Shown one piece after another: positions 28,276-59,804 of a DNA stretch of 64,000 bases (its first letter is position 1; each line of letters begins with the position of its first letter). The stretch is from Eunapius fragilis. Lineage: Eukaryota > Porifera > Demospongiae > Spongillida > Spongillidae. The position numbers were made by a program, and so were the translations under genes. The stretch spans positions 8,788,736 to 8,852,735 of the forward strand of contig OY811979.1 in the NCBI GenBank assembly GCA_963681505.1, written 5' to 3'. The notes beneath the pieces were generated by a model. That model saw only the letters and a list, made by a program, of their open reading frames with translations, did not search any database and was not told the DNA's origin.

Positions 28276-28283
28276 ATTAATTA

Positions 28284-30328: not shown

Positions 30329-30339
30329 ATACAAGAAAA

Positions 30340-36790: not shown

Positions 36791-36794
36791 CTTG

Positions 36795-37665: not shown

Positions 37666-37794
37666 TTCCACTGTACTTTTGCAGAGGCGTATTTAGGGGG
37701 GTGGGGGGCTTAGGGGGCTCGGGCACCCCCCTCCGTCTCCGTCTCAAGGATGACCACAAGAATGGGCGTGGTTGCCAAACAATTTCGCGCTACA

Positions 37795-38022: not shown

Positions 38023-39540
38023 TGTGAACCTGATGTTATAGCAACCAGTTATCTCAGGGTTTTACATGTAGCTGTTCGTATGTGTGCACGATATGACGCT
38101 TTCCTAAATTTGTTTTGTATATTTATCATAAATGAGCATCTCCTTGTAATATCACACATGTTACACAACTGCTATGGACTTCCTATTTTCAACGCATCAT
38201 ATAATACACATTTGCTGTATGGTAAAATGTATATTCTTGCTTTAACTTCGTGTTTTTATCCCGAATCCCACGTTTATTAAGACCCACTATGGATTTTTGC
38301 TGATATGATCAAATTGCACCAGCACATTAAAAACGATACAGATGGGGAAATAATAGTGGGCTATGCATGTATACAACAGAAATTTCACCACGTGCTGTTT
38401 GATAGCTTTGGCTTACGTACTCGAACGAAACGGTAAAACACCACTACCATTCTCATTCCCGCCTGATGTAGCGATCCCTCGTGTTAAAATACTCAATCGG
38501 TTATCATAATTAGTTCCACTATTGTGCCGTGTGAGAAATGCACGAAATGACTTGGTATCTGGGAACTAATAAAACGCTCAACTAAATTTGCGCATGGCAT
38601 GTAGGATATAGTTTTGATAGTGTTTCGGCAACAACAAAAACATGTCAGGACCTGTTGTTATTATACACTAGTCTGGCACGCAGAAATTTTAATTTGCGCA
38701 CTTGCGCTGCATCAATCCATATAAGCGTGGGCGTACCGTCGCTCTATCGTTTTTATTTTTAGCAGAACGGAGGTTTGGCACAATGTATCGTACTATTTTA
38801 AGAGCAGAAGTCTCGTGAGCAGACGACACATCAATATTTAAAAGATGACGCAAGGTATTACATAATGACATACGCTTATGAATATAATTAGTTATGCTTG
38901 GTTGTAATTAATTTATTTCTCTTGATTTTAGTTAATGGATGCTTAATGTTCGTTTCACGATACACATATAGTATAATCAGACCGATTTTTAGCGAATATT
39001 GAATGTGTTTGGAATTCAATTTGATAAAATTAATTTTTGTTAATTGATTTGAATTAATAATTTCTTGTCTTGAAACATGATAAATCATTTAAAAATGTGA
39101 CAAATTTATTGGTGAAATCAGAATTCTCAAATCTCTATCACAACTTTACATATTCATTCATGTCCTCCATTTCTGGCCATGGCCTTGTGTGGTGTGTGTG
39201 TGTGTGTGTGAAAAGCATGGACTCCCATCCTGGCCCAAACGGACGTGCTATAATATTTTATTTTTTAATCTTGCACTCGTATACACACATACACACACAA
39301 ACAGAAGTTGAAAGCGTTTTTACTGAAACACAAAGAATCAGCTTTATGTATATAAACGATGAACTCATTGTTAAATTGGATTAACGGTATTCCTCCGGCT
39401 ATGTATATATAACGATGAATTATTATAAACGTACATCCTGAGGAACATGGATTTAGTAGTACCGGTAGCTGCAGTGTTGGGTAAGCCAGTGTGAATTATT
39501 TAACATAGCGCGCATGTTAGTGTGCACGCCAGGGGCTAAA
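38023..39540. other. AT-rich spacer, no gene recognised
   Basis: Only short microsatellites ((GT)n near 39196) and AT-rich sequence were seen. Confidence 0.5.
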
Positions 39541-40272: not shown

Positions 40273-41375
40273 TTTGGTCTGGCCGGACCAAAACGCGCGG
40301 TCTAAAATGGTCCGGCCGGACCGAATTGAGTGCTCGATTAGGTCCTATGCGTCAGTCACTTTTTGGTCCCATCTACGTCCAGCGATTTGGAGCCAGAATT
40401 ATAGGCGCCGTGCACGCGTGTATTACCTTTATGATGTAATCAAGACTACGTCATTGAAATATATTATATGATCGAGCATTCGATATAACCTTTGGACGTA
40501 ACCAATGGCTCTTGAAAAATCACTGTTCCATAGAACTGAAGGTCTATATCGAGCTGTATCGTCTATACTCACTAGTAAGTCATAATGGGTGCATTGGTGG
40601 AGGCATAGGATATCTTTGGTCGCGCGAATATAAAGCGTGCAAGCCGTCTCCCAGTCCACTGGACACGAGAGGCGGCTAGATGGGCAACGCCCTACCTTAG
40701 CGTGTCGTACTCAAGCTAGTGGGCTGTTACAGTAAATAGCGTACACCCCTACTGATGACAAAAACTTATGTCCTAGGGGTGGGGGGAATGTAAGTCTACG
40801 CAAACCATCCTGGGGAGATATGTCCTGGTGTGTATGTGTACAAGTATATATCAATCATGTCCTGGGGGTAGCTGTAAATCATGCCATACGGGATGTGATG
40901 TGATCTGGAAGGGGGGGGGGGGGGGGGGGGGGGGGACCATGTAATACATATGTCTTGGGGGATCATATGATGACATCAGTACCTGTTATTGACAATGTCA
41001 GGTGAGCATGTAGAAGGTTCGAAGTACTGTAGGAGTGTTCCGGTGGGGTACACGTTTTATGCATGTGGTGCGTCTTTTATGTGATGTGACAGAGCATTGG
41101 TGGGCGTTCCCTGCCTCCCCTCCCTCCCTCCCTCCCTCCCTCCCTCCCTCCCTCCCTCCCTCCCTCCCTCCCTCCCTCCCTGCCTCCCCTCCCTCCCTCC
41201 CTTGCCCTTTATGGCTGCATAAAAAAAAAGAAAAAGAAAAAAAAAGAAAAGAAAATTTTATAGCCATTAATGCAGACCACAAGTGTAGTTGTGATTGACC
41301 TGAGGACCAAGGTAAAAAAAAGTGTCTTTGGCTGGTGTGTGTACAATCTCTCTTGCTCTCTCCTTTTGGTTACAG
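40273..41375. other. Upstream region of the TPR-CHAT gene
   Basis: Holds poly-G (about 40911-40935), a (CCCT)n tract (about 41110-41195) and an A-rich run. No upstream exon was identified, although a 'ttacag' acceptor at 41375 implies one, perhaps non-coding. Confidence 0.5.
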
Positions 41376-41415: not shown

Positions 41416-44283
41416 ATGAGAAAAGCGGTCAGGAGAATGGACGCCAACCACGATGTCACCAACACCAGCCAAAGGAGTGTAACACAACCTTCAGACTCCA
41501 GTAGAGACACTCCACACCCACTCATCTCCTCGCCTACCTACGTCTGGACCAACTGCACCGATGCCCACTCAGGCCACACTAACCAGCGAAGCGCAGACCT
41601 TCTGAACACAGCAGCCGGCTGTTTCCTTGCACAGGACTACAGCGGGGTGGTCCAGCTGCTTGAACAAGCCTCTCCTGGTGAGCCGTCTTCCACCCCAGAC
41701 GTGGCGTCTCTCCTGGGCTGTGCACTGGCCTACTACAAGTTGGGGGACTACCAAACGTCAGCAGCAAGGTTCAGAGTACTGGAGAGCTTGGATTCTCCCT
41801 CTGCCGATGCGTGCGGAGCTCGTTTTCTTGCCTGCTTGTACCTCGGGGACATCCATAGCATCGAAGGGGACTACCTAGGAGCTGTCTCATATTACGGCAA
41901 GGCTACATCCTGCTACACCTCCTCCCCTCCCCCCTCCTCTGTTGCTGCCGCTTATTGCCCGCAGACCCCATCTCTGTCCTCGCTCTACTTGAAGCAAGGC
42001 GCCAACCTCAGGAAGGCTTCAAAGATCATGGCGGCCATCGAAGCGTACAGAAATGCCATTAAAACCGCTGTCCACAACAGGAAGGATCGTCTCGCGGCAT
42101 ATACCGGTCTGGGCACCCTGCACCACGCCCTCGGTGACCACACTTCCGCGGTGCAGCAGTACACAGAAGCCCTAGGTCTGGCGGAAGAGGAGGGGGACTT
42201 GGTGTCCCTGGGTCATGCGCACGGGAACATCGGCAATGCGTACGTGGGGCTCCACCAGAGAGACAAGGCTCTCTTCCACCTCGTGAAGAGTTTGGACCTC
42301 ACCCTGGAGAACGATCCAGTTCCCCAGGCCATAGGACGTGCCTACAATAACCTTGGCACCGCTTACCAGTCGCTCGGGGAGCTGGACAGAGCAGAGGAGT
42401 ACTACCAGCTTGCCCTCGGACAGTGCATCTATGGTAAGGACCCAGCGGGGCAGGCCCGCGCCTATGGTAACCTGGGCAACGTAGCAATGCTGAAGAAGGA
42501 CCATGACGCAGCCATCGCCAGCTTCACCGAGACATTGCAGATCAGCAACGATTCGGCAATTCTAATTGCTGCTCATCACAATAGGGGATGCTGCTTGAGT
42601 GAGAAGGCAAGGAAGATGACATCAGGGGCTATAGATGACACCAATAGGATCACGTTCCACGGTCCATCAATGGCGTGTGACCAGCGTCTCCTGTCGGAGC
42701 CGGTTCGGAGTCTGTATTCAGAGGCATTGGGTGACCTCAAGGATGTGATAAAATCACACGAAGATACACTGCACAGCATAAAGGGGTCTGGGGAGGGCTT
42801 AGGCCTCTCTGTGTCCCTTGCTGAGAGTAGCTCACGGACCTTCCACCACATGCAGGACTGTCTCTGTGCCCTGGGAAGATCCTCTGATGCCCTCATGTAT
42901 GCAGAGCAAAGCCGGGCTCGATCGCTTGGTGAGCTTCTGTTGAGAAAGAAGGGTGCCCAGTTTGGGCGTCTGTTCTCCCCTCCCCTCTCCTCTGGGGACA
43001 TCAGCTGCATAGTCCTGGAACAGAGCGTCAACGTGGTCTATCTCTCCTACACCGGTGCCAGCCTGCTTGTGTGGGTGCTTTCACCCTTACGCGGCAGGGT
43101 TGTGGAGAATATGATAGAGGTGAGGCTGGATGGCGTGCTCTTTAACGGCAGTACGCTGGAGGTGTTCCTCCACAACACAATGTCAGAGCTAATTGCCAAG
43201 AACTCTCTGGAGATGTTTGAGTTCTGCGACTACTCCTCCCCATCCCCACTTCTTCCCCTAGGCAGCATCCTGGTTCAGCCTCTCCTCAAAGTGCTAATGG
43301 CAGTCCACTTGGGCCGCCTTCCCAGTGAGATTGTACTGGTACCCGACAGCCACACACTGATTCCATTTGCAGCACTCCTTCATCCTGACCGTTCTGGGTT
43401 CCTAGGGGACAGGCTGCGACTTCGTGTTATGCCATCCCTTCTGACGATGGGGTTGATGTGTCACACCCCCTCTACCCAGCAGTTGCTCACCCGGGTCACA
43501 ATCCCATTGGATAGTCCCAACTTCTGCATCGTGGGAGACCCGGCCATCCCTCCCTTCAGACACAACGGAGAGGACTGGAAGCTGGGGCGCCTCCCCCACG
43601 CCCGAAAGGAGGCGGAGTGGGTCGCCCACATTCTTGGAAGCCACGCCCTCCTGGAGGAGGAGGCCACTAAGGTGAAGGTGTGCAGGAGGCTGGTGGAAGC
43701 CAAGCTGATCCACATTGCGACACACGGAGGGAGGGTGAGCGGGTTCCTGGCACTGGCCGGGACCCAGTGTGGGTCTGGGGACTGTCCCACTGAGGGCACC
43801 GACGTCCTTCTCTTGCCCAGTGAGGTGGAGAAGCTGACCATCAGAGCTGCCATCGTTGTCCTCAGTAGCTGTGACAGTGGGCGTGGTATGGTGCGTGCTG
43901 ACGGCATCATCGGCATGGGAAGGGCCTTCCTTCTTGCGGGTGCCCAGTCCGTCCTCACCACTCTGTGGAGGATCCCCGATGAGAGTGCTGGTATGTTCAT
44001 GCAGTTCTTCTACCAATACCTGGTGGATGGTCTGGGCACCACACATGCCCTCCAAAAGGCCACTCTGAGTGTGAGGTGTTTCAAGAAGTATTCCTCGTAT
44101 TCACACTGGGGTGGGTTCCAGCTGATCGGAAGGGATGTGCAGTTTGTGGTGGAGAGGACCTCAGAAGACATCATGTTGTGTACGAGGGTAGGAGGAGGCA
44201 GTGCCTTCCCCCGTCTGGACCTGCTGAACAAGATGGAGGATGCCATTGTGTTGTGTACTGCTGGCAGAGCGTCAGATGTCCAG
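41416..44283 (+). CDS. TPR-CHAT-STAND protein, exon with TPR and CHAT peptidase domains
   Basis: From the first ATG after the acceptor at 41375 the exon encodes 956 residues and ends at donor 'gtcagt' in phase 0. Residues about 55-430 are tetratricopeptide repeats (for example 'YTGLGTLHHALGDHTSAVQQ', 'AYNNLGTAYQSLGELDRAEE', 'AYGNLGNVAMLKKDHDAAIA'), a protein-binding scaffold. Residues about 620-930 form a CHAT domain, a caspase-clan Cys peptidase. The catalytic pair is present: His770 in 'IHIATHGG' and Cys819 in 'VVLSSCDSGRG', followed by 'GMGRAFLLAGAQSVLTTLW' and 'FFYQYL'. The last residues ('DAIVLCTAGRASDVQ') lead into the STAND-like part in the next exon (45364). TPR-CHAT proteins are known as regulated proteases, including in bacterial defence; in this animal an innate-immune or death-signalling role is inference only. 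The same gene continues at 45364-46161 and 59373-59804. Confidence 0.9.
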
Positions 44284-44639
44284 GTCAGTTGTTCATGAGG
44301 TGATTGGTCATGAGGTGATTGGTCATGGGGTCAGATCATTTATGAGGTGATTGGTCAAGGGGTCATATTGTGACTACATCACAATGTGTGTCATCACAAT
44401 ATGTCATTATACTGTTTGATTAGGTCAGGGGTCAGAACACTTGCCTATGTATAACAACAATGCCATGGGGATGTTGTCATGGATGTCATGGCGACAATGA
44501 CAGGACAGTAGTTTGTTAGTGAGGGGGTGACCCTAAGGGGGTGGAGGGGGCTAGCCCCATCAATTTGGTGAGGGGGTGGAGGGGGCTTGCTGGTTGTAGG
44601 TCCATAAAAGCTTCCAATAAAAAGATACTTGTGACAATA

Positions 44640-44942
44640 ATGTTATAAGGTGCTCCTATAAGGTGCTGCCATAAGGTGCTGTTATAAGGTGCTGCCATAA
44701 GGTGCTATTATAAGGTGCTCCTATAAGCAGAGATCATGTATTAGATAATATATTATCTCTGCCATAAGGTGCTGCCATAAGGTGCTGTTATAAGGTGCTC
44801 CTATAAGGTGCTGCCATAAGGTGCTGTTATAAGGTGCTGTTATAAGGTGCTCCTATAAGGTGCTGCCATAAGGTGCTGTTATAAGGTGCTGTTATAAGGT
44901 GCTCTTATAAGGTGCTCCTATAAGGTGCTGCCATAAGGTGTA
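44640..44942. repeat. 13-bp tandem repeat in the TPR-CHAT intron
   Basis: About 20 copies of 'ataaggtgctgtt', '..gcc' or '..cct'. They are interrupted at about 44727-44762 by a 36-bp imperfect palindrome with ends GCAGAGAT / ATCTCTGC. Confidence 0.95.
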
Positions 44943-45363
44943 CCTTCTTAACATCAAGATACCTGAAAGAAAAACTTTTATAGGTACCATTTAATGTCTA
45001 TTGTCCTGACAGTCCACGGGGAAAGGAGGGGGGGGGGGGTTGCATTGATGTGGTGTTAAATGTAGACCTCATGTTGTACAGGTGTCAAGACCTCTGCCTC
45101 TGTTAGTTGTATCGAAGTTCTCTACCTTACTTCCTCTCCTCCCCTCTCTCCTCTCACCTCCCTCTTGTATTACCTCCTTGAATTACCTCTTACCTCCTCC
45201 ACTTCCTCCTTCCTCCTCTCCCTCCCTCCTCTCCTCCACTCCTCTCTCTCCTCTCCTCCACTCCCCTCCCTCTCCTCCACTCCCTCCACTCCACTCCTCC
45301 CCTTCCCTCCCCTCCCCTTCCCCCCTCCCCTTCCCTCCCCTCCCCTCCCCTCCATGATTCCAG

Positions 45364-46161
45364 ATACTACATTCCTGTTCCGGTCTTGTACCTGAGGAGC
45401 CTGTTATTGATTTCATCATTAAACACCACACCCACTTTGGGGGAGGGATATTCTGGGTGAACGGTAGCTTGGAGCACCTCTTGCAAGGCTCAGTGAGCAT
45501 ACTGAGTGCCAACATGCCCCAACCACAACACTTACAGGAGACCCTCCCACTGGCCCCTCCCACCAACCCCTTGGCCCCTCCCACCAGCCCCTTGCTGATC
45601 GTCCTTGACAACCTCTGCACTGATGTGATGCCTGAAGCCATGCTGTCTGTCCTGGCAAGCTGCCATACCCACATCATTGTGATCACCACCAGTCCAGAAG
45701 CCATGCAGGAAGAAGCACGCACCAGGCTCCACAGGGGGTCCTGTGTCCACAGGGTGGAGCCGTTGAGCCCCCTCCAGGCAACACAGAGGCTCGTGTATAC
45801 GTTGCAATCGAGGGTTCATCTCGTTCCCCTCAACAGTGACCAGGAGCTATTGGCACGGGTGGTGGGCGTGTCCCACGGCTCACCTGAGCTGGTCGACGCC
45901 TTCTCATCGTTGCTGTTACAGCGCGGCACCAGGAACAAGAGAGACACGGAGCCAATGGACGAAATAGCATTACCCAGCGAGGATGTTCTTTGTGGCGATT
46001 CGGGGGACTGGCTGGCTCAGGTGTCCCATTCTCTGCTGGGAGGGTTCAACTCAAGCCCCGCCTACCTCAGTCCAGAAGAGCAGCTGGTCCTGTCTAGCTT
46101 GCTTCTCTTTGGGGAATCCCCCATACCAGAGGTTGTGGTGGATGCAGTCCAAGAGATAGTT
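45364..46161 (+). CDS. TPR-CHAT-STAND protein, STAND-like exon, 5' part (split by transposon)
   Basis: The exon opens after 'gattccag' in phase 0. It encodes a degenerate NB-ARC/STAND module: 'EEPVIDFIIKHHTHFGGGIF' and 'WVNGS' (strand after the P-loop helix), 'LLIVLDNLCTD' (Walker B-like), 'HIIVITTSPEA' (sensor-like), 'GVSHGSPELVDAFSSLL' (GxP-like) and 'LSPEEQLVLSSLLLF' (start of a winged helix). A canonical GxxxxGK[ST] P-loop is missing; its place is taken by 'TAGRASDVQ' across the exon junction, so ATP binding is doubtful. Translation would run 'VVDAVQEIV' and then enter the CACTA element at 46162, meeting a stop five codons later (ends 46176). The rest of the exon is at 59373. Confidence 0.88.
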
Positions 46162-46390
46162 CACTGGATGAAATAGTGCATTTACACCGTATGTAAATGC
46201 TATGTAAATATGATGTATATGTGACATTTACTTACTTTACAATTTTGCAAATGTCATATTTACGAAGCATTTACAGGGGTATATAAATATGGTATATGTG
46301 CAATTTACTCACATTTACACTTCAGCAAATGCTGGAGTAAATGTGATATTTGCGTTACATTTAAACACCGTGGGATACCTATTGGTCATT
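46162..46390. repeat. Left subterminal repeat region of the CACTA element
   Basis: About a dozen copies of 'catttac', 'atgtaaat' or 'catatttac' in both orientations within 230 bp. Such subterminal arrays are the binding sites of the accessory protein in plant En/Spm. Confidence 0.8.
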
Positions 46391-46455
46391 AAAATACTCC
46401 TTATTAAAATTAAATAGCCATTGTGCTATAAACTTTTAATATCTTATCTCATCTG

Positions 46456-46805
46456 AACCTGCGGCAGCAGGTTCAATATAGGATTGATTGAGGGTTGATG
46501 AATGTCATTAATAAAACTTCACTAGCGTCTGGAGGGACAACGGAGAAACGGATCGCTTATCTCTTTATTGCGATAGAATGAGGGTACAACGACCTACAGT
46601 TCTACGTTGGTACCGTGTCATAAAACGGTGTGGTTATAGAGAAACAAACAATTTCCTGTTTCTCGTGCCCAGTCCTAAAATAATTCTCCATCGTCGTCGT
46701 CGTCGTCGTCTTCTTAGGAAGGTATAACTCGAGCTAGGAATGGTTTAGAAGGACGGGAATAGTACCAATCGCTTCGAAATTTACCGGCACGTTATCCATA
46801 CATGT
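46456..46805. repeat. Dispersed repeat family X, copy B (nested in CACTA)
   Basis: Starts with hairpin GAACCTGC / GCAGGTTC, then 'aatatagga', 'gaatgtcattaataaaac', a (GTC)n tract, 'ggtataactcgagc' and 'gtaccaatcgcttc'. Homologous to 28284-28650. Confidence 0.7.
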
Positions 46806-46964
46806 CATATAGACACATATCAACTTCTATTTAATAATGTATGTAATAGATATTTATTAATAATTTTAGGCAGTATAAATACTCTAACCTGCACAAAAAA
46901 TATTTGGTGTTCCTATCGCAGTTTAGTTGTTACTTTGGCTAGTGAAGTTGTTTTTCTAAAAATG

Positions 46965-48244
46965 CCTGGCTTCGCGTAATCAAAAGAAGAGATTTAAGCA
47001 ACGAGCGGAATACCTCCAAAAGCAAGACGAGAACAAAGCTAAAGCCCGAGCGCTCTACAAGGCCGATCCCGAAAAGAAGAAGGCCTCTGTACGCGACAGC
47101 TACAACGCAGATATTGAATCTAAGCGATCTGCTAAAAGGCGGTGATATAAAGAGGACCTTGAGGAGAACCGTGCTGCTAAAAGGCGGCGATATGAAGAGG
47201 ACCTCGAGGAGAACCGTGCTGCTAAAAGGCGGCGATATGAAGAGGACCTCGAGGGGAACCGCGGTGCTAACAGGCGGCGATATGAAGAGGACCTCGAGGG
47301 GAACCGCGCTGCTAACAGGCGGCGATATGAAGAGGACCTCGAGGAGAACCGTGCTGCTAAAAGGCGGCGATATGAAGAGGACCTCGAGGAGAACCGTGCT
47401 GCTAAAAGGCGGCGATATGAAGAGGACCTCGAGGAGAACCGTGCTGCTAAAAGGCGGCAATATGAAGAGGACCTCGAGGAGAACCATGCTGCTAAAAGGC
47501 GGCGATATGAAGAGGACCTCGAGGGGAACCGCGCTGCTAACAGGCAGAAATACGAGGACAATTCAGCTGCCATTAAAGCATCTAAAAGGAGTCGGTATTG
47601 GAATGACCCCGCTGTCCGATTGGCTAAATGTGCTTCCGAGAGGACGCGGTACCGCAGGGGTCACAGCACTACCACTATCACCCAAAGGTATGTTATGGCA
47701 TGTTGTATTAACATTAAAAAGCTGTGCATGCAACATTTGTAGAGCATAGTCTGGCGGTGTTTGGTCGGGCTTGTCACCCTTCTACCTGACCAAACGCGGT
47801 AGTAGGGCCCGCCCGACGATGTACAGCACGGATCAGCACAAAACCATTCACTTCACATCACTGTCATGTAAAGCATGCATGGTGACTCAACTGTGTGTAC
47901 AGTAATAGTGTCTATTGTTTTACTAATCTGATGTATAAAAAGGCTTCCTTATTTGAAGGCTTCCTTATCTGTCTAGCCATGTACATGTGTTGCAACTGTA
48001 TGAATATAATTACAGTTGCAAGGGCTGAGAACTATAGGTGAAATGACAATAACTGCAACCATATCCTGCTCCCATATAGCTACTCCTTGTATGAACCCAA
48101 ATCTCATGCACTAATGGAGTATAATGGTGGTCTTGAAAAAGCTATTCTTAGGGATAGTGAGCTTCTAAGTGAAGTAAATGATGCCTTTTGTAAGTCTCAT
48201 CCATTGCTAGCTCAAAAGGTTGTTACTAGATCTGCCACCATAAG
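46965..48244 (+). pseudogene. Basic-repeat protein gene of sponge-type transposons, remnant
   Basis: Exon 1 (to 47687, donor 'gtatgt') encodes 'NQKKRFKQRAEYLQKQD', then nine 15-residue units of the type 'RRRYEEDLEENRAAK' (45-bp DNA repeats, about 47135-47545), then 'SRYWNDPAVRLAKCASER'. Exon 2 (48080-48244) encodes 'EPKSHALMEYNGGLEKAILR' and 'KSHPLLAQKV'. The same order of parts occurs in a family of transposon-linked proteins I recall from sponges. An in-frame TGA at 47143-47145 (CGA to TGA, a CpG-type change) and an unresolved frame at the ATG near 46963 make this copy defective. The extremely basic/acidic repeat suggests nucleic-acid binding. It may be part of the CACTA element or an older nested insertion. 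Confidence 0.6.
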
Positions 48245-48726
48245 GTACTTCTACTCTCACATTTATGTAAAATCAGACATTCTGCCCACACTCATAACGC
48301 TGCAGACCTTGTCCACACTCACCTGAAAACATATCCTTATCAATCTACATGGTGCCATGTTATCCCAGATCTACATGCAGTCATGTAGTTCGCTTCCTGA
48401 GTTCCCACACTATCCAGCTTTACTTCATGTAGGCTACACCTCCATGTTTAGATTGGAGCATTTTCAAATTTGACCAATAAAATTTTAGCACATGCCGTTA
48501 ATATGATGGAATTGGACCAATAGAATTATAGCACAGTCTGCACACGTGTTAAGGCTTTGCAGGTATAAAAGTCAGTCATGCACCCGCTGAATTATAGTGC
48601 ACTTTGAAAAAAGAGGTAAGAATTTAATAATATACTCTATGTGGATTCACGTGTAAACTTGCTTGAAAAAAGAATTAGGTATAAAATTTAAAAATCATAC
48701 TCTCTGTCTCTGTCACATACATGTAG
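48245..48726. other. CACTA interior, no gene recognised
   Basis: Spacer with two copies of an 'attggaccaataaaattttagcac'-like word (about 48465-48535) and a TATA-like 'gtataaaag' (about 48563). Confidence 0.4.
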
Positions 48727-49239
48727 ATGGCAGCTGAAGACCTAACTGGTTTTTTTTATCAAGAGGGGTCGGAGGAGGAAGAGGATGACATACATCCTCC
48801 GACTCCTCCCCTTCACCCCGCCACCTCCAGAAGCCCCACCACTCCTACCACCACCAGCAGCAGCAGCGCTACCCCCGCCGGCACCACCAGCGCTGCCCCC
48901 GCCGGCACCACCAGCGCTGCCCCCACCGGCACCACCAGCGCTGCCCCCGCCGGCACCACCAGCGCTACCCCCCCCCCCCCCCCCCCCCTCTGGGCACCAC
49001 CAGCGCTACCCCCGCCGGCACCACCAGCGCTACCCCCCCCCCCCCCCCCCCCTCTGGGCACCACCAGCGCTACCCCCGCCGGCACCACCAGCGCTGCCCC
49101 CGCTACCACCGCCGCCTGTGCTCCCTCCCTGGCCTGCATGGCCACTGCCACCCTGACAGAACGCAGCATGGCAGGGAGGCCGAGGAGGAGGACGTCCCCG
49201 CAGGAGACGAGGGCGCGGGCGAGGACAACTAATAATTAA
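48727..49239 (+). CDS. Acidic and Ala/Thr/Pro-rich ORF with AT-hook-like tail
   Basis: ATG-to-TAA frame of 170 codons. It has an acidic N-terminus ('EGSEEEEDDIHPPTPP'), then repeats of 'AAPAGTTS' encoded by a 24-bp tandem unit with two poly-C runs of about 18-20 bases, then a basic tail containing 'GRPRRR', an AT-hook-like motif. Poly-C length changes would shift the frame, and other frames are also open, so coding status is uncertain. It lies inside the CACTA element. Confidence 0.3.
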   Translation: MAAEDLTGFFYQEGSEEEEDDIHPPTPPLHPATSRSPTTPTTTSSSSATPAGTTSAAPAGTTSAAPTGTTSAAPAGTTSATPPPPPPLWAPPALPPPAPPALPPPPPPPLGTTSATPAGTTSAAPATTAACAPSLACMATATLTERSMAGRPRRRTSPQETRARARTTNN

Positions 49240-49517
49240 TACTACAAATTCATATAATAATAATTATTATTATTAAAGTTATTTATTGAAAATGATACTA
49301 CATATACAGTTTTAAGCTACGCAATTTTACTAAACAAAAACAATACACTGGAACGGAGAAGGTGAGGAGACTAACATCCAGTTGCCATTGAACGGGACAG
49401 CAGAGCTCTGGCATTCGCTCTAACTAGGACCAGGTTTAACCTGCCATAGAGAGCCGAAGTGACCTGGGACTTGCAACAATTTGATCTAATTGCCTACGGT
49501 GAAAAAAAACCTATGAA

Positions 49518-49813
49518 ACAAGTAAATAAAAACATTCTCTAACGAGAGAGTTGTTGGTATATAGGATTGACCAATGGTGGTGTAAAAAGCACGGAAACAA
49601 GAGTGACAGAAATTTTACTCGAAAATTGAAATTGGCCTATATTTAGCACGCTCACAAAATAACAGCGCATGCCTGAGTAATGTGCTAAATATAGGCCAAT
49701 TTCAATTTTCGAGTAAAATTTCTGTCACTCTTGTTTCCGTGCTTTTTACACCACCATTGGTCAATCCTATATACCAACAACTCTCTCGTTAGAGAATGTT
49801 TTTATTTACTTGT
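49518..49813. mobile_element. Fold-back MITE nested in the CACTA element
   Basis: A near-perfect palindrome of about 296 bp with arms of about 135 bp, starting 'acaagtaaataaaaacattc' and ending with its complement. It is the best-preserved of the five copies in the window. It sits 29 bp from the stop codon of the minus-strand gene. Confidence 0.92.
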
Positions 49814-49842
49814 ATACATTAATGCACACACATGATAGAAAG

Positions 49843-51068
49843 CTAGCCACGAAGAGGGAGTTCCTTTACGGCCCACGCAGGAGCAGATGAAGGTGGTTGC
49901 CGAGTTGACGGAGCGCCATTGTACCGCTTGCGGCACATCTCCCTTGCTCTATTCGAGCTCTTTCGCTGGGCCTTTCGGTCCATGCTGGCAATTATCGAAT
50001 TCGCCCTGTCACTTCGCCAAGGAAGTGGACGAATTTTAAATATTGTTACTGGGAGCGCCTGGCGTTCATCTTCACTCCCAGCAGACTCCTGCCCTGTTTC
50101 TTCGGATGACATGTAGTCTACCGTGAGGATCTTCATCGCTTCACTTTTCTCTTCGGCAGTAATAGCCGTAGAAGTCGCGCAGGCGTTCATCCTGCTATGG
50201 GCTTTCTATAAATATCATATAGACTGACGTTGATAATAAATTCCAATATCATGACAATATGACTCACGTTGTGCTTTCGCTGGACCTTTCGCTGCCGCTT
50301 TTTTGATTCGTCCAACTTCCCCGCCAGTGCCATTTTGTCACGTCGCTTTAAGCTAGCGAAGTATATTCTTGCGGCTTCTACATGAATGATGCAGCGTATA
50401 TAAAAGATATTCTAATACCTGCATACATGGCATACTTCGGACAACAGCAGCGGGAAATTTGTCGCTTTGACAAGCAGTGACAAGTTCATCTGTCACACGC
50501 AGGTTGGCAATATCTGTAAAACTACGTATACCGCATTAGTACTGATGACCTGTGTGATTGATGCATGCACATGCATGCGGTACCTTTGGGATGTATTCCA
50601 CTCCATAGGATTGTCTATCTGATGGCGCAGGTGTTTCACAGTGCTATGGATTGCAGACTGTAAATATAAATGCAGATAAGGGGTGTTATTTAATACATAA
50701 TGATGATGGCACGAAATAGCGTACCGACAATTCCTTGGAAATCTTTTTCTCCTTCGGGGACTCTGCTGCTGCGGCGGCTGCCGATGAGGAAGGTGTTAAG
50801 CTCCTTAGCTCCGCGATCTGGTCCTGCAAACTTTTCAGGGAATCGAGGATTTTATCTTGGCAGGTAGTATTGTCCGATTGCAATCCAGCGGTAGCGGGAG
50901 ACCCTCCTAATATGCATGCATATCATAGTGTAGATGCATACGTTTTCAGTGATTTGTATGTACATTGTATTATTATATGGCATATAGATTACCAGAGCGA
51001 GGTACAATAGGCCGATGAGGGAATAAAGATGAATTCACACGACTGGGAGTGACGAACGGCGACGACAT
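49843..51068 (-). CDS. CACTA-encoded second protein, six exons, 296 aa
   Basis: All six exons join in frame with GT-AG borders: 50993-51068 (ATG, 'MSSPFVTPSRVNSS'), 50725-50906 (coiled-coil-like 'ILDSLKSLQDQIAELRSL', then poly-Ala), 50584-50657 ('HSTVKHLRHQID'), 50436-50521 ('DIANLRVTDELVTACQ'), 50268-50377 ('AARIYFASLKRRDK' and a Lys/Arg-rich stretch) and 49843-50205 ('VDYMSSEETG', 'RPLPWRSDRANSII', 'RYNGAPSTRQPP'). The order 'RYF/IYF..LKRR', basic stretch, 'YMS.EE', 'PLPWRS', 'PS.R..P' is a pattern I recall from proteins paired with Tnp2-like transposases in invertebrates. By position it is analogous to the En/Spm accessory protein that binds subterminal repeats; that role is inference. The gene appears intact and shares a 150-bp promoter region with the transposase. 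Confidence 0.75.
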
Positions 51069-51218
51069 TCTTGATACAGACTTCAAAGTACGACAGAAGC
51101 AATGAATGGACAGATGCTGCAAATGCTATCTTGGCGCAAATAAGAGATTTCTATTCCCATTGGTCGGCGCGTGTTTGCATGACGTCATTGCTGAACATTA
51201 AACCAATTCAAAGTGAGA
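51069..51218. promoter_or_regulatory. Divergent promoter region of the two CACTA genes
   Basis: 150 bp separate the start codons of the minus-strand gene (51068) and the plus-strand transposase (51219). It contains 'tgacgtcattg' (CRE-like, 51180) and 'cattggtc' (CCAAT-type in reverse, about 51157). No TATA box is obvious. Function is inferred from position. Confidence 0.5.
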
Positions 51219-54200
51219 ATGCCTCGTAACCGTCGTTATTGTCCACACTGTCGTGAAACAGTCTCCTCAAATACGTACCTGAAGCATAGAAGGCTTTATT
51301 TCAACTCATCGTCGAATTCGTGGGCAATACAAAATCTATTAGCGGCAGCTACATCCGATGAGAGCGATTTGGACAACGAGCAGTTTTCAAATAGAAGCAG
51401 ATATAGTGATTCAGATGAATTTTCAAATGGAAGCAGATATGATTCAGACGAAGCAGCAGGTAAAGGCTGCTTTTTAAAATTCGCCCCGCTTGATGCATGC
51501 AATGTATATGCGATCTGCGAATCATTAACTGATTGCATGACTGAATTCTATTATTGCACACTATATAGATACGCAAGATAATCAGGATGAAGAAATTGGA
51601 GAACAAGAAAAAGGCTACGAAGAGGAAGAAATAATAGATGATGGAGAAATGTGGGATGACCAAGCTGCAGACATTGACGAGGATATTCAAGGTAATAGCA
51701 CTTCAGATCTCCCTCCCAGTAACGTTATGCCGATGGCTCAGGATTTAGTAGAAGAATCAATTTCAAGGAAAGCAAATGCAGTAACAATCTGTTTTCTAAC
51801 CATTCTGCTGAAATGGTTTTGTCGGTACAATATTGGAATTAACGCCATCAACACCTTGCTAATTATTTTGCATTTCTACTTTTTAATCTTAAAACAGTTT
51901 TCCCCACTATTAGCCTCAATATCATTCATCTTTCCTAAATCTTTGCGAAGCTTACAAAATATTCTTCGTGTTAATAGAAATAGTTTTATAAAGTTTATTG
52001 TATGTCCTGAATGTCACTCCATATATAATCTAGACAATTTACTCACAAGTGTCGAAAACGTTTGCACATATTGCGAGTACCCACAGCATCCTCATCGAGC
52101 TCGTAGAAAACCATGTGGCACAAAATTGGTGGCTAAAATAAAACTAAAGGATGGATCATTGAAAGTGTATCCCCATAAAATGTATTGTTATAAATCTCTT
52201 GCAGAATCATTGAAATTGCTTTTTAGTCGTCCAGGTGTACTGTCAGCATGTGAAAAATGGAGGCAAAGAACTATCCCTAGCAATGCATTGCACGACATAT
52301 ACGATGGTAGAGTGTGGAAGAAGTTCATGCATGTAAATAACACTCCATTTTTAGCTGCTCCTAATAATATAGGACTAATGCTGAATGTGGATTGGTTCAA
52401 CCCTTACAAACACTCCCCTTATAGTGTTGGTGTTATTTATTTAGTTATTCTAAATCTGCCAAGATCAATGCGGTTTAAAAAAGAAAACATCATTTTAGTT
52501 GGTTTAATACCAGGTCCACATGAGCCTTCGTTGCATATTAATACATATCTTGATCCACTTGTTGAAGAGTTGAACACTTTATGGAAAAATGGAATTCAGA
52601 TACAATCACCAGATGCACATAACCCCATCACTTTAAGAGCTGCTTTGCTTTGTGTAGCCTGTGACACACCAGCAACTAGAAAGGTGTGTGGATTTTATGG
52701 TCACATGGCAAAATGTGGTTGCTCAAAGTGCACAAAAGTTTTTGAGACCAACCCAGAAAATGGGGTGATGTGCTATGGTGGTGGTTTCAATACAGTTTCG
52801 GCCCCACGCAAAGAGGAAGACCATCGTGCACAAGCCTTTTTAAGCCAACAGCAAGTCAGCAATGCTGCTAAACAAAGAGTTGAGTCGCTGAGTGGGTCAA
52901 GGTTTACATCTTTGATGCACTTGGAATACTTCGATTGTATAAGGTTCCACATCATTGATGCCATGCATAACCTTTTTTTGGGTACTGCAAAACATGTAAT
53001 GAAAAATATATGGTTAAATGAAGATTCCCCTATTATCCCAAAAAATCGCCATACCATTTTACAATCAAAAGTGGATAAATGTGCATTTCCGTCATCATTA
53101 GGAAGAATACCACATAAAATTGCTTCAGGATTTAGTTCATTTACAGCAGATGAATGGAAAATGTGGACAATGACCCTCTCAATGTATGTGCTGGATGGTG
53201 AGCTAGAGCAGACACACTTAAATTGTTGGCATCTTTTTGTTCAAGCATGTCAAATGCTAGTGTCACCAATGCTAACAATTGAAGAAGCAGAACAAGGTCA
53301 TGACCTACTAGTTAAATTCTGCATTGAATTTGAGACATTGTATGGCATAGAGAAAGTCACTCCAAATATGCATATGCATACACATCTAGTTGAATGCATT
53401 ATGGATTATGGGCCTGTGTATGCATTCTGGCTTTTTTCATTTGAAAGGTATAACGGTATACTGGGTAACTATCGAACCAATAACCGGTCAGTGGAAGTTC
53501 AGTTCATGCAACACTTCATGCATGATGTACAGGTTGACAATCTGAATATTCCCGTAGAGTGCTTGAATGTACAAACGACAACAATGCAACAATTGTTCAA
53601 CAAAGATTTAAGCACTGGTACATTAAATGATATGAGCTCAGAACATGGCATGGAGTATTGGGCAGTTATTACTTCCACAAAACTGTCAGTTCATGATGTG
53701 CCCACCAACATTTGGTCCATCAGTGCTCACTATTGTCTATCAGGGGCTGCATCAGAGCACTATCTTGATGAAGACAGTACACTGTATTTGGCCAACACCT
53801 ATCAAGTGATGTACAAACAGGATGTTATCAACACAAGTATTTCATTTCGTGCAATGTCATATACATACATCAAGAACGGAAACACAGTGTATGGATCAAT
53901 CGGGAGCCGTTCCAAAAGATCATGCTACATCCTCGCAGCATGGTGTGGTAAAGATGGTCACGTGGACATAAGTACAACAGAACTTCGTCCAGGTCAGGTT
54001 ATGTATTATTTTCAGCACAACTATACCATGACTGGAAACACAAAATCTTACATTTTTGCGTTTGTTAAATGGTACCAACGTCACCAATGTCATCATCCTC
54101 AATCACGCCAGGTGTGGTGCTCTAATTTGTATGAACCATTTGGCCCAGCATCATTCTTACCAGTACAAAGAATACACTCACAGTTTGTTGCAGCAAGTAC

Positions 54201-54261
54201 AAAGCTAAATGATGAAAACGTTCTATATATCTGCCCACTACAACAGAAGGTTTTTTTATAA
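51219..54261 (+). CDS. CACTA Tnp2-type transposase, two exons, 977 aa, intact
   Basis: Exons 51219-51459 and 51569-54261 join in frame (phase 1) through donor 'gtaaag' and acceptor 'tatatag'. The protein begins with a Cys/His motif ('RYCPHCRETVSSNTYLKHRR'), then an acidic linker, a hydrophobic helix region (about residues 150-215) and a second Cys cluster ('VCPECH', 'CTYCEYPQHPHR'). The transposase domain follows: 'GLMLNVDWFNPYKHSPYSVG' (Asp355), 'GLIPGPHEPSLHINTYLDPL', 'LLCVACDTPATRKVCGF' (Asp446), a Cys motif 'CGCSKC', 'IIDAMHNLFLGTAKH', and 'YAFWLFSFERYNGILGNY' (Glu706). Asp355, Asp446 and Glu706 are the proposed DDE triad by position in conserved blocks. No stop or frame break is seen, so the element may still be mobile. 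Confidence 0.9.
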
Positions 54262-54576
54262 CAAAACATGTGACAATGTACACTCTAATGACTATTGATT
54301 GCAATTATGTATTTCATGATTGTAAAGCCATCACCAATATATTACTCAAATTGAGTGAATGATTACTTGTGAAGTGAGAGTAATACATAGATGAACAAGG
54401 CTTTAAAAAGGGGAGGAGCTATTGGTACTAGGCCCTTCCATATATGGGGTTAAACATAACTCATGTACATGTAGACATGTACATCATTTGTTTATAAACA
54501 CGGCAGCTGGACTTTTACACATCTAGCTCACTTGACTCTGAACATTAGTAAGTCCATACCCACCATTTAAAAAACG
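54262..54576. other. Spacer between transposase and satellite array
   Basis: AT-rich; contains 'acatgtacatgtag'-like words. No gene. Confidence 0.5.
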
Positions 54577-57500
54577 GTCCAGAGGACTCACCGTGCATCG
54601 CCAAGATGTCAGAAGCATCAAGCTCTCTTAGGTAACCATCCTGGTCACCCTGTAACAGAGGCAGCACATGACCTCAAACCACCTGTGAGATATTCTAATT
54701 AGTTTGTGCGCACGATACAAATAAACATGTCCAGAGGACTCACCATGTATCGCCAAGATGGCAGAAGCATCAAGCTCTCTTAGGTAACCATCCTGGTCAC
54801 CCTGTAACAGAGGCAGCACATGACCTCAAACCACCTGTGAGATATTCCAATTAGTTTGTGCGCACCACACAAATAAACATGTCCAGAGGACTCACCATGT
54901 ATCGCCAAGATGGCAGAAGCATCAAGCTCTCTTAGGTAACCATCCTGGTCACCCTGTAACAGAGGCAGCACATGACCTCAAACCACCTGTGAGATATTCT
55001 AATTAGTTTGTGCGCACCACACAAATAAACATGTCCAGAGGACTCACCATGTATCGCCAAGATGGCAGAAGCATCAAGCTCTCTTAGGTAACCATCCTGG
55101 TCACCCTGTAACAGAGGCAGCACATGACCTCAAACCACCTGTGAGATATTCCAATTAGTTTGTGCGCACCACACAAATAAACATGTCCAGAGGACTCACC
55201 ATGTATCGCCAAGATGGCAGAAGCATCAAGCTCTCTTAGGTAACCATCCTGGTCACCCTGTAACAGAGGCAGCACATGACCTCAAACCACCTGTGAGATA
55301 TTCTAATTAGTTTGTGCGCACCTTACAAATAAACATGTCCAGAGGACTCACCATGTATCGCCAAGATGGCAGAAGCATCAAGCTCTCTTAGGTAACCATC
55401 CTGGTCACCCTGTAACAGAGGCAGCACATGACCTCAAACCACCTGTGAGATATTCCAATTAGTTTGTGCGCACCTTACAAATAAACATGTCCAGAGGACT
55501 CACCATGTATCGCCAAGATGGCAGAAGCATCAAGCTCTCTTAGGTAACCATCCTGGTCACCCTGTAACAGAGGCAGCACATGACCTCAAACCACCTGTGA
55601 GATATTCCAATTAGTTTGTGCGCACCACACAAATAAACATGTCCAGAGGACTCACCATGTATCGCCAAGATGGCAGAAGCATCAAGCTCTCTTAGGTAAC
55701 CATCCTGGTCACCCTGTAACAGAGGCAGCACATGACCTCAAACCACCTGTGAGATATCCTAATTAGTTTGTGCACACGATACAAATAAACATGTCCAGAG
55801 GACTCACCACGTATCGCCAAGACCTCAGAAGCATCAAGCTCTCTTAGGTAACCATCCTGGTCACCCTGTAACAGAGGCAGCACATGACCTCAAACCACCT
55901 GTGAGATATTCCAATTAGTTTGTGCACACGATACAAATAAACATGTCCAGAGGACTCACCATGTATCGCCAAGATGGCAGAAGCATCAAGCTCTCTTAGG
56001 TAACCATCCTGGTCACCCTGTAACAGAGGCAGCACATGACCTCAAACCACCTGTGAGATATTCCAATTAGTTTGTGCGCACCACACAAATAAACATGTCC
56101 AGAGGACTCACCATGTATCGCCAAGATGGCAGAAGCATCAAGCTCTCTTAGGTAACCATCCTGGTCACCCTGTAACAGAGGCAGCACATGACCTCAAACC
56201 ACCTGTGAGATATCCTAATTAGTTTGTGCACACGATACAAATAAACATGTCCAGAGGACTCACCACGTATCGCCAAGACCTCAGAAGCATCAAGCTCTCT
56301 TAGGTAACCATCCTGGTCACCCTGTAACAGAGGCAGCACATGACCTCAAACCACCTGTGAGATATTCCAATTAGTTTGTGCACACGATACAAATAAACAT
56401 GTCCAGAGGACTCACCATGTATCGCCAAGATGGCAGAAGCATCAAGCTCTCTTAGGTAACCATCCTGGTCACCCTGTAACAGAGGCAGCACATGACCTCA
56501 AACCACCTGTGAGATATTCCAATTAGTTTGTGCACACGATACAAATAAACATGTCCAGAGGACTCACCATGTATCGCCAAGATGGCAGAAGCATCAAGCT
56601 CTCTTAGGTAACCATCCTGGTCACCCTGTAACAGAGGCAGCACATGACCTCAAACCACCTGTGAGATATCCTAAATAGTTTGTGCACACGATACAAATGA
56701 ACATGTCCAGAGGACTCACCACGTATCGCCAAGACCTCAGAAGCATCAAGCTCTCTTAGGTAACCATCCTGGTCACCCTGTAACAGAGGCAGCACATGAC
56801 CTCAAACCACCTGTGAGATATTCCAATTAGTTTGTGCACACGATACAAATAAACATGTCCAGAGGACTCACCATGTATCGCCAAGATGGCAGAAGCATCA
56901 AGCTCTCTTAGGTAACCATCCTGGTCACCCTGTAACAGAGGCAGCACATGACCTCAAACCACCTGTGAGATATTCCAATTAGTTTGTGCACACGATACAA
57001 ATAAACATGTCCAGAGGACTCACCATGTATCGCCAAGATGGCAGAAGCATCAAGCTCTCTTAGGTAACCATCCTGGTCACCCTGTAACAGAGGCAGCACA
57101 TGACCTCAAACCACCTGTGAGATATCCTAAATAGTTTGTGCACACGATACAAATGAACATGTCCAGAGGACTCACCACGTATCGCCAAGACCTCAGAAGC
57201 ATCAAGCTCTCTTAGGTAACCATCCTGGTCACCCTGTAACAGAGGCAGCACATGACCTCAAACCACCTGTGAGATATTCCAATTAGTTTGTGCGCACCAC
57301 ACAAATAAACATGTCCAGAGGACTCACCATGTATCGCCAAGATGGCAGAAGCATCAAGCTCTCTTAGGTAACCATCCTGGTCACCCTGTAACAGAGGCAG
57401 CACATGACCTCAAACCACCTGTGAGATATTCTAATTAGTTTGTGCGCACCACACAAATAAACATGTCCAGAGGACTCACCATGTATCGCCAAGATGTCAG

Positions 57501-58912
57501 AAGCATCAAGCTCTCTTAGGTAACCATCCTGGTCACCCTGTAACAGAGGCAGCACATGACCTCAAACCACCTGTGAGATATTCCAATTAGTTTGTGCGCA
57601 CCTTACAAATAAACATGTCCAGAGGACTCACCATGTATCGCCAAGATGGCAGAAGCATCAAGCTCTCTTAGGTAACCATCCTGGTCACCCTGTAACAGAG
57701 GCAGCACATGACCTCAAACCACCTGTGAGATATTCCAATTAGTTTGTGCGCACCACACAAATAAACATGTCCAGAGGACTCACCATGTATCGCCAAGATG
57801 GCAGAAGCATCAAGCTCTCTTAGGTAACCATCCTGGTCACCCTGTAACAGAGGCAGCACATGACCTCAAACCACCTGTGAGATATTCTAATTAGTTTGTG
57901 CACACGATACAAATAAACATGTCCAGAGGACTCACCATGTATCGCCAAGATGTCAGAAGCATCAAGCTCTCTTAGGTAACCATCCTGGTCACCCTGTAAC
58001 AGAGGCAGCACATGACCTCAAACCACCTGTGAGATATTCTAATTAGTTTGTGCACACGATACAAATAAACATGTCCAGAGGACTCACCATGTATCGCCAA
58101 GATGTCAGAAGCATCAAGCTCTCTTAGGTAACCATCCTGGTCACCCTGTAACAGAGGCAGCACATGACCTCAAACCACCTGTGAGATATTCCAATTAGTT
58201 TGTGCGCACCTTACAAATAAACATGTCCAGAGGACTCACCATGTATCGCCAAGATGGCAGAAGCATCAAGCTCTCTTAGGTAACCACCCTGGTCACCCTG
58301 TAACAGAGGCAGCACATGACCTCAAACCACCTGTGAGATATTCCAATTAGTTTGTGCGCACCTTACAAATAAACATGTCCAGAGGACTCACCATGTATCG
58401 CCAAGATGTCAGAAGCATCAAGCCCTCTTAGGTAACCATCCTGGTCACCCTGTAACAGAGGCAGCACATGACCTCAAACCACCTGTGAGATATTCCAATT
58501 AGTTTGTGCGCACCTTACAAATAAACATGTCCAGAGGACTCACCATGTATCGCCAAGATGTCAGAAGCATCAAGCCCTCTTAGGTAACCATCCTGGTCAC
58601 CCTGTAACAGAGGCAGCACATGACCTCAAACCACCTGTGAGATATTCCAATTAGTTTGTGCGCACCTTACAAATAAACATGTCCAGAGGACTCACCATGT
58701 ATCGCCAAGATGTCAGAAGCATCAAGCCCTCTTAGGTAACCATCCTGGTCACCCTGTAACAGAGGCAGCACATGACCTCAAACCACCTGTGAGATATTCT
58801 AATTAGTTTGTGCACACGATACAAATAAACATGTCCAGAGGACTCACCGTGTATCGCCAAGATGTCAGAAGCATCAAGCTCTCTTAGGTAACCCTCCTGG
58901 TCATCCTGTAAC
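54577..58912. repeat. 152-bp satellite, 29 copies, nearly every unit carrying a spliceable 58-nt exon
   Basis: The same word ('ccaagatg.cagaagcatc') recurs from 54601 to 58857, a distance of exactly 28 x 152 bp, so there is no net insertion or deletion. On the minus strand each unit holds an acceptor 'ctgttacag', a 58-nt exon coding 'GDQDGYLRELDASAILAIH' and a 'gtgagt' donor. Variants of the exon read 'DASEVL' or 'DASDIL'. The 'EVL' units start a strict three-unit pattern between about 55800 and 57200 (spacing 456 bp, four times). The first and last units are the most divergent. In the last unit the minus strand is open upstream to an ATG at 59076 ('MMLSSRVIRSLIKLY'), which could be a first exon. 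Splicing all units in series would hit a stop in the second one, so at most one unit per transcript could be used. Confidence 0.95.
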
Positions 58913-59099
58913 GGAGGTTTGCAATTGCAAATTATAGAAGCTCCAAGCGTGCGCGAGCATACTCTGTGTGTGCGTGTATTTTCGCGCGCAAGGCTTTCAT
59001 TCAATGAATTCAACTTGCATCGATTCGCGCAGTATAATTTGATCAGAGATCTTATGACACGAGACGACAGCATCAAATCGTAGACTGTAGACTGTAGAC

Positions 59100-59369
59100 T
59101 GAGATTATACGATCAAATTTCGATGATACTATATTTCTTGCAAGTGTTACTTTTAATTAGAGCAGCAATTATGATAGATGTAAATGTGGTGCAAATATGT
59201 TCGTAAATATATTATACATTTACACGGATAGTAAACATTATGTAAATAAGGTGGCAAATGTATAACATATTTACATCACAGCAAATATGTTTGTAAATGT
59301 GTATTGACATATTTACAATACATCTACACGATTAGTAAATGCGTGGTAAATGTACTTTTTCGCGTAGTG
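59100..59369. repeat. Right subterminal repeat region of the CACTA element
   Basis: Many 'gtaaatgt', 'catatttac' and 'catatttgc' words in both orientations up to the terminus 'gcgtagtg'. Matches the left region in motif and density. Confidence 0.8.
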
Positions 59370-59372
59370 GTT

Positions 59373-59804
59373 GGACAGGCGTCTCCTAGGGGGAGTTGCC
59401 CCCCTCTGGTGGAGGGGTTGAGACAGCGTCACCTTATAAGGCAGTACCCCTCCCCATGTGTGGTGAAGCCCAGTACTGCAGCCGTGGTCTGTGAAGGAGG
59501 GGGAGGAGGAGGGGGAGGAGGAGGAGGGGGTGCCATCCTGCTGCGTGTGCCGCAACTCATCGCTGATGCCTTGTGGAGTGTACTGGACGAAGGGGGGCGT
59601 GTCATGGCTGTTGCCATGGCGCACAAGGCCCTGAGGAATGCATGCCAGCGTGTACCAAGAGAGGACGATTACACGTGGGCGGTCTGCAGTGGAATGGGTG
59701 TGGCTCTGGCGGAGGCAGCAGGGGGCGTGGCTGGGCTCACAGAGGACTGTTACCACCTGCTCTACCAACCTGTGTCCCGTGAAGATGTTATGATGTCATC
59801 ATAG
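59373..59804 (+). CDS. TPR-CHAT-STAND protein, STAND-like exon, 3' part
   Basis: This is the continuation of the exon broken at 46161. The GTT at 59370-59372 repeats the GTT at 46159-46161, and the frame continues 'EIV-GQASPRGSCPPLVEGL', giving the end of the winged helix ('LVEGLRQRHLIRQYP'). After that come a run of about 12 Gly, 'VPQLIADALWSVLDEGG', a helical tail and a TAG at 59802-59804. With the two upstream segments the uninterrupted protein would be 1365 residues. No promoter is expected here, so on this haplotype the segment is probably not expressed unless the 13-kb insert is spliced out. Confidence 0.88.
   Translation, partial: GQASPRGSCPPLVEGLRQRHLIRQYPSPCVVKPSTAAVVCEGGGGGGGGGGGGAILLRVPQLIADALWSVLDEGGRVMAVAMAHKALRNACQRVPREDDYTWAVCSGMGVALAEAAGGVAGLTEDCYHLLYQPVSREDVMMSS

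What the first reader, a model, noticed from the sequence alone, without database searches (positions are those of the whole stretch)
46159..59372. A 13.2-kb CACTA transposon sits inside a coding exon of a TPR-CHAT-STAND gene, with an exact GTT target duplication
Seen directly: GTT at 46159-46161 and 59370-59372; element ends CACT...AGTG; about 18 of 24 terminal positions inverted-match; and the host frame continues across the insert ('VVDAVQEIV' then 'GQASPRGSC', finishing a winged helix). Three independent signals (duplication, terminal repeats, frame) agree to the base. A large autonomous-looking CACTA caught disrupting a predicted immune-type protease gene is unusual in animals and implies a recent event, perhaps one haplotype only.
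Basis: partly seen in the sequence, partly recalled or inferred. Interest (0 to 1): 0.92.

Follow-up and report, generated by a model that had tools for sequence, protein, structure and literature searches.

The report
Jumping gene split a duplicated gene
A young CACTA-type jumping gene landed in one copy of a duplicated TPR-CHAT gene in an animal genome and cut off the end of its predicted protein; sister copies elsewhere in the same genome still show the undamaged site, so the event is real and recent but of an ordinary kind.

Summary
A CACTA element (46162-59369) flanked by GTT lies in an exon of a TPR-CHAT gene. Three paralogous loci in the same genome run straight through the site with a single GTT. 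One, at C9:3.45 Mb, lies in a segmental duplication with 26 mismatches in about 12.2 kb of compared blocks, so the insertion is probably younger than that duplication. The frame ends after 1,222 of 1,365 codons plus four foreign residues.

Corrections: the CACTA itself is 9.85 kb; a 3.36-kb Helitron-like insert (46452-49812), absent at that site from the sister copies compared, enlarges it. All 11 family copies with both ends fetched have 3-bp duplications, and three transposase frames are unbroken. CACTA transposases are common in this genome, and uninterrupted copies of the host exon remain. The label STAND found no Pfam or PDB sequence support.

A side result is less ordinary: the element's 152-bp array unit agrees at 147 of 152 consensus positions with that of a CACTA element whose transposase shares only about 38% of residues, which suggests exchange between co-resident families. 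Polymorphism and RNA effects could not be tested.

The parts
41416..44283 (+). Host gene exon 1 (TPR repeats and CHAT domain), first ATG of the open frame to splice donor (hand model)
   Evidence: Open frame; Pfam CHAT E 5.1e-43 and TPR; exon model and paralog comparison
45364..46161 (+). Host gene exon 2, part before the insertion
   Evidence: Continuous 411-residue frame in paralog L018
46159..46161 (+). Target-site duplication GTT, left copy
46162..46185 (+). Left terminal inverted repeat, begins CACTG
   Evidence: 18 of 24 inverted match to right end
46162..46401 (+). Left subterminal region, nine ATTTAC/GTAAAT motifs in 240 bp
   Evidence: 9 observed, shuffle mean 0.31, maximum 3 in 500
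46174..46176 (+). In-frame TAG that ends the host frame four codons inside the element (V-HWMK-stop)
46452..49812 (+). Nested Helitron-like insert, 3,361 bp, TC...CTTG, between A and T, no target duplication
   Evidence: Absent at this site from six copies displayed (L033, L034, L037, L038, L040, L041) and, by the alignments, from the inner copy, L042 and L043; relative inserted at another A/T site in L030
49843..51068 (-). Probable accessory gene of the CACTA element, several exons, splice model unresolved
   Evidence: Hand model, one in-frame stop at an exon junction
51219..51459 (+). Transposase exon 1 (hand model)
51569..54261 (+). Transposase exon 2, tnp2 domain, unbroken
   Evidence: Pfam Transposase_21 E 1.9e-25; unbroken also at C2:3337647 and C23:2551300
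54577..58917 (.). Tandem array, 152-bp unit, 28.6 copies
   Evidence: unit number varies from 0 to 29 among ten family copies counted
59130..59369 (+). Right subterminal region, nine ATTTAC/GTAAAT motifs in 240 bp
   Evidence: 9 observed, shuffle mean 0.38, maximum 3 in 500
59346..59369 (-). Right terminal inverted repeat, reads CACTA inward
59370..59372 (+). Target-site duplication GTT, right copy
59373..59804 (+). Host gene exon 2, part after the insertion, to the stop codon
   Evidence: Joined in one frame in paralog L018
26046..60944 (.). Segmental duplication shared in blocks with C9:3448467-3466000 (inverted; 17.5 kb on that side); the window side is stretched by transposon insertions; right edge at about 60944, left edge beyond the fetched DNA
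   Evidence: 26 mismatches in about 12.2 kb of the blocks compared

Best explanation
A cut-and-paste CACTA (En/Spm type) transposon inserted at a GTT in exon 2 of one copy of a recently duplicated TPR-CHAT gene. Shown: ends, 3-bp duplication, an unbroken transposase frame, and empty sites in paralogs. Inferred: insertion followed the segmental duplication, and a 3.36-kb Helitron-like element later entered this CACTA copy or its direct donor. The reading frame now stops four codons inside the transposon, so unless the insert is removed by splicing the predicted protein lacks its last 143 residues. Uninterrupted paralogs could cover the function.
For: Empty sites in three paralogs, single GTT, ungapped across the junction. 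3-bp duplications in 11 of 11 copies with both ends fetched, L042 and L043 probably being one event. tnp2 domain E 1.9e-25, full length without a stop in three copies. Subterminal motifs 9 and 9 against shuffle means of 0.31 and 0.38. Closest copy 4 mismatches in 4,761 bp of the core. Nested insert absent at this site from the sister copies compared. Host copies differ by 13 bases in 4,098 coding bases, in 12 codons: 7 synonymous, 5 not.
Against: No reads, RNA or second haplotype were available, so loss of function, fixation and activity are not shown. The accessory gene could not be modelled cleanly. The left edge of the duplication was not reached. The duplicates differ more in the simple repeats of the intron and by indels, which the 0.2% leaves out (98.7% over 7,025 aligned positions with 76 gaps).
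Confidence: 0.94

Rival explanations
1. The insertion is older than the duplication, and the C9:3.45 Mb copy lost the element by precise excision.
For: CACTA elements can excise (general knowledge).
Against: Three paralogs have a single GTT and no footprint; the element's core is 4 mismatches in 4,761 bp from another copy, as expected of a recent jump.
Confidence: 0.04
2. The element is spliced out like an intron, as described for some plant CACTA insertions, so the window copy still makes a nearly full protein.
For: Plant precedent in passages of PMC4219821. By eye, an in-frame pair of cryptic sites in the host exon (a donor-like GAG/GTTGTG and an acceptor-like ACAG/GCG) would remove the element and 12 host codons; not scored by any tool.
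Against: The open frame meets a stop four codons into the element; no RNA evidence; the intron would exceed 13 kb.
Confidence: 0.08
3. Assembly artefact: the element or the duplicate was misplaced by the assembler.
For: The window has one 200-N gap at 9376-9575; the two host copies are nearly identical.
Against: The gap is 36 kb away; no N in the element or in L029 and L030; a target duplication and exact family ends are not what a misjoin gives.
Confidence: 0.02
4. The window copy was already a dispensable duplicate and the insertion is neutral (compatible with the best explanation).
For: Two other loci have exon 2 uninterrupted; a third is itself damaged (L020).
Against: Apart from the insertion the spliced frame has no stop in 1,365 codons.
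Confidence: 0.6

Closest known systems
Plant CACTA elements inserted in genes, e.g. soybean Tgmt* (20.5 kb, in F3'H) and TgmR* (13 kb, in a MYB gene)
   Same: Large CACTA element within a gene; for Tgmt* also CACTA ends, 3-bp target duplication, subterminal repeats and tnp2 transposase (passages of PMC2613891 and PMC4219821)
   Different: Those two lie in introns; this one lies in an exon of an animal gene and carries a 4.3-kb tandem array and a nested element
Animal CACTA-related TRC elements: SmTRC1 of Schistosoma; Spongebob of Hydra
   Same: Animal host; SmTRC1 has the Transposase_21 domain
   Different: They have CCC ends and 2-bp target duplications (passages of PMC1636069 and PMC4298943); this family has CACT ends and 3-bp duplications. 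Whether Repbase holds animal elements with CACT ends was not checked
TPR-CHAT gene family expanded in corals
   Same: TPR followed by CHAT; number changed by recent duplication (passages of PMC12314368)
   Different: Here 18 CHAT matches in the genome; those passages give 6 to 362 genes in corals, 15 in Nematostella and 1 or 2 in most other animals. The gene here has a further C-terminal region that the insertion cuts

Membership tests
CACTA (En/Spm) superfamily | Terminal inverted repeats beginning CACT(A/G) | tested here: met
   CACTG left, CACTA right; 18 of 24
CACTA (En/Spm) superfamily | 3-bp target-site duplication | tested here: met
   11 of 11 copies with both ends fetched, window included; four other loci (L045-L048) showed one end only
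CACTA (En/Spm) superfamily | tnp2 (Transposase_21) transposase | tested here: met
   E 1.9e-25, 89.8 bits, cut-off 28.6
CACTA (En/Spm) superfamily | Repeated subterminal motifs | tested here: met
   9 and 9 in the two 240-bp ends against 4 in 4,764 bp of core
CACTA (En/Spm) superfamily | Second gene for a subterminal-binding protein | tested here: inconclusive
   Candidate on the minus strand; hand splice model not clean
CACTA (En/Spm) superfamily | Catalytic DDE residues | not tested
   No structure or residue alignment was obtained
Helitron (nested insert 46452-49812) | Insertion between A and T without target duplication | tested here: met
   2 of 2 sites examined
Helitron (nested insert 46452-49812) | 5' TC and 3' CTRR | tested here: not met
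   Starts TC, ends CTTG; hence only called Helitron-like. The rule is recalled
Helitron (nested insert 46452-49812) | Rep/helicase protein | tested here: not met
   No such Pfam match in three open frames of the insert; one repetitive frame had a match below its cut-off to an unrelated family, taken as chance
CHAT protease | CHAT domain | tested here: met
   E 5.1e-43, model positions 7-289 of 289
STAND / NB-ARC ATPase | Recognisable NTPase domain | tested here: not met
   No Pfam match at E up to 5 in six exons of this gene family, no PDB sequence at E up to 1. By eye a Walker-B-like LLIVLDN is present and the P-loop position lacks GK(S/T)

The most novel reading that the evidence does not exclude
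Co-resident CACTA families in this genome exchange a 152-bp module array by recombination or repeated capture. The unit consensus of the window family agrees at 147 of 152 positions with that of the C18 element (L050) and at 134 of 138 with that of the C9:2.53 Mb element (L052). Their transposases match that of the window at only 37% and 39% (for C18, 48% of codon-aligned bases and 34% at third positions). In both, as in the window, the array lies roughly 0.3 to 0.5 kb beyond the 3' end of the transposase gene. All 29 units of the window carry a 58-nt exon-like stretch between splice-like sites on the opposite strand. The superfamily would then evolve by trading 3' modules while transposases diverge.
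Probability: 0.5. Interest if true: 0.45.

Novelty: new member of a known kind. Interest (0 to 1): 0.33.

Why it matters
It is a documented filled site and empty site of a young animal CACTA family with plant-like ends and 3-bp duplications, in a duplicated gene. That makes the date, frequency and effect of the insertion directly testable. The array shared among distant CACTA families is a test case for module exchange between transposons.

Tried and rejected
Insertion bias to exons: of ten junctions examined (window included, the self-nested inner copy not), only the window shows a clear host exon. This was judged by eye from open frames, without a homology search. L038 has a 433-residue frame that looks like a reverse-transcriptase sequence, and the L034-L036 outer copy a 199-residue frame of unknown nature. 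No bias claimed.

Coding constraint on the 58-nt exon-like unit: exon columns (mean conservation 0.962) are no more conserved than the rest (0.964), and codon positions show no third-position signal; the 12 splice-signal columns are slightly higher (0.984). As 58 is not a multiple of three, chained units would meet a stop. So no repeat protein is claimed.

Pooled comparison of the array: the first count (4 differences in 152 between 128 family units and 31 others) was dominated by L051 (20 of the 31 units), where no transposase was identified. It was therefore redone locus by locus. L053 (two units, no transposase identified) agrees less well, 133 of 147. In some searches, 159 of 183 unit alignments were kept (24 with 25 or more gap positions dropped); gaps are not counted as differences.

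tblastn of the transposase in the plasmid collection: no match. The species was not identified; the Dysidea avara passages (575 Mb, 15 chromosomes) do not fit a 219-Mb, 24-contig assembly.

In one search, element hits inside the array or of 150 bases or less were filtered out before reading. In one search, divergence was counted on chosen blocks; the repeat-rich intron (44284-45363) and short stretches at 39192-39299 and 41101-41299 were left out, and gaps were not counted.

Full report
What is there. The window is C9:8788736-8852735 of a 219-Mb, 24-contig genome. Between two GTT triplets (46159-46161, 59370-59372) lies an element of 13,208 bp with ends CACTG... and ...TAGTG. The ends match each other in 18 of 24 positions, which no shuffle reached (0 of 100,000). 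Genome searches with each end show multi-copy sequence that starts and stops at the same bases.

Proof of insertion. Exon 2 of the host gene has close paralogs at C9:3450039-3450842 and C17:451027-451830, both uninterrupted, and C17:423840-424643, which is damaged otherwise. A 240-base join of the window flanks with one GTT aligns without gaps to the first (one mismatch) and second (235 of 240), and to the third over 157 bases (154 of 157). The C9 paralog belongs to an inverted segmental duplication: 17.5 kb fetched on that side match window 26046-60944 in blocks, the window side being stretched by transposons, with a sharp right edge and an unreached left edge. Over the blocks compared there are 26 mismatches in about 12.2 kb (intron repeats and gaps left out), and in the coding sequence 13 base differences in 4,098, in 12 codons (7 synonymous, 5 not). 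The insertion is therefore probably younger than a duplication of about 0.2% divergence. No year is given, since no mutation rate is known here.

What the element is. Pfam finds Transposase_21 (tnp2) at E 1.9e-25. The 240-bp ends hold nine ATTTAC/GTAAAT motifs each, against shuffle means of 0.31 and 0.38. The 11 copies with both ends in hand all have 3-bp duplications (GTT, TAA, CAG, GCG, CAG, TCA, AGC, GAT, TCA, TCA, GCA); L042 and L043 (both TCA) share flanking sequence and may be one event. These are features of CACTA elements. The transposase frame is unbroken over its full length in the window, at C2:3337647-3340337 and at C23:2551300-2553990; other copies are broken or partial. The core is 4 mismatches in 4,761 bp from the C2 copy. 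One family member sits inside another (L034-L036).

A composite. Window 46452-49812 (3,361 bp) is missing at that site from the six copies displayed, which read CTTATCTCA-TATACATTAA across it, and by alignment from others, so the CACTA itself is 9,847 bp. The insert begins TC, ends CTTG, lies between A and T and made no target duplication. A relative inserted in the same way upstream of the C9 paralog. It resembles a Helitron but lacks the CTRR end (rule recalled) and a recognised helicase.

Effect on the host gene. The predicted gene has TPR repeats and a CHAT domain in exon 1. Exon 2 has no Pfam or PDB sequence relative at the limits used but is shared by more distant paralogs at 23-31% identity. 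The insertion falls after codon 1,222 of 1,365; the frame then reads HWMK and stops. Loss of 143 residues follows unless the element is removed from the RNA. The genome has 18 CHAT matches; passages of PMC12314368 give 6 to 362 TPR-CHAT genes in corals and 1 or 2 in most other animals.

How unusual. Transposase relatives are common here: 59 matches after scoring 51 of 622 candidates, of which 18 listed at 34-39% identity have no stop in the match. Animal CACTA-related elements have been in print since at least 2006 (SmTRC1, PMC1636069, passages). Those described there and in PMC4298943 (passages) have CCC ends and 2-bp duplications, so this family is closer to plant CACTA in its ends. Plant CACTA insertions of 13 and 20.5 kb in genes are in print (PMC4219821 and PMC2613891, passages). 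Other papers were seen only as search listings, apart from the passages on Dysidea avara (PMC12909245).

The array. The 4.3-kb array has 152-bp units with 97% mean pairwise identity (28 units) and varies from 0 to 29 units among the ten family copies counted. Each of 29 units in the window has a 58-nt stretch between TTACAG and GTGAGT on the minus strand. The same unit lies next to transposases only 37% (C18) and 39% (C9:2.53 Mb) identical in protein, and at C4:5.18 Mb and C11:4.06 Mb, where no adjacent transposase was identified. Long alignments of the arrays give 83-90% identity. Locus by locus, the unit consensus agrees with that of the window family at 147 of 152 positions (C18, 7 units), 148 of 152 (C4, 20 units), 134 of 138 (C9, 2 units) and 133 of 147 (C11, 2 units). 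The transposase coding DNA of the C18 element agrees at 48%, with third positions at 34%. Exon-like and other columns are equally conserved, so coding constraint does not explain the likeness; exchange or repeated capture does. One literature search (13 papers held 4 of 5 terms, 8 listed) showed no title on this in animals, which is not a proof of absence.

Verdict. The finding is real and exact; its interpretation needs the corrections above. It is a good example of a known process rather than a new one.

Noticed in passing
54577-58917; L050:3782-5191; L051:772-3981; L052:1291-1819: The 152-bp array unit is nearly identical between CACTA families with very different transposases (for L051 no transposase was identified), and each of the 29 units of the window array has a 58-nt exon-like stretch on the minus strand.
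   Followed up: partly
L050:5803-7000: The divergent C18 CACTA locus has a second, different array of 166-bp units after the shared one.
   Followed up: no
14500-23209: About 8.7 kb or more is present at 99-100% identity at two other places on the same contig (C9:5925285 and C9:4895671).
   Followed up: no
28282-30329: A 2.05-kb repeat with 32 near-full copies listed at 96-100% identity and inverted ends of about 285 bp.
   Followed up: no
35667-39191: A 3.5-kb insertion absent from the segmental duplicate, bounded by GGCC on both sides by eye.
   Followed up: no
47129-47545: The nested Helitron-like insert has an open frame of about nine 15-residue repeats (45-bp period, 9.3 copies).
   Followed up: no
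44250-44283 and 45364-45460: By eye the region after CHAT resembles an NB-ARC module whose P-loop has lost GK(S/T); paralogs L025 and L028 look the same.
   Followed up: partly
L034-L036: A CACTA copy of the family inserted in another copy of the same family, each with its own 3-bp duplication (GCG outside, CAG inside).
   Followed up: partly
L031 and L020: The C17:424 kb paralog has about 165 bp deleted just after the empty site and a shifted frame, so it is a damaged copy.
   Followed up: partly
9376-9575: A 200-N assembly gap.
   Followed up: no
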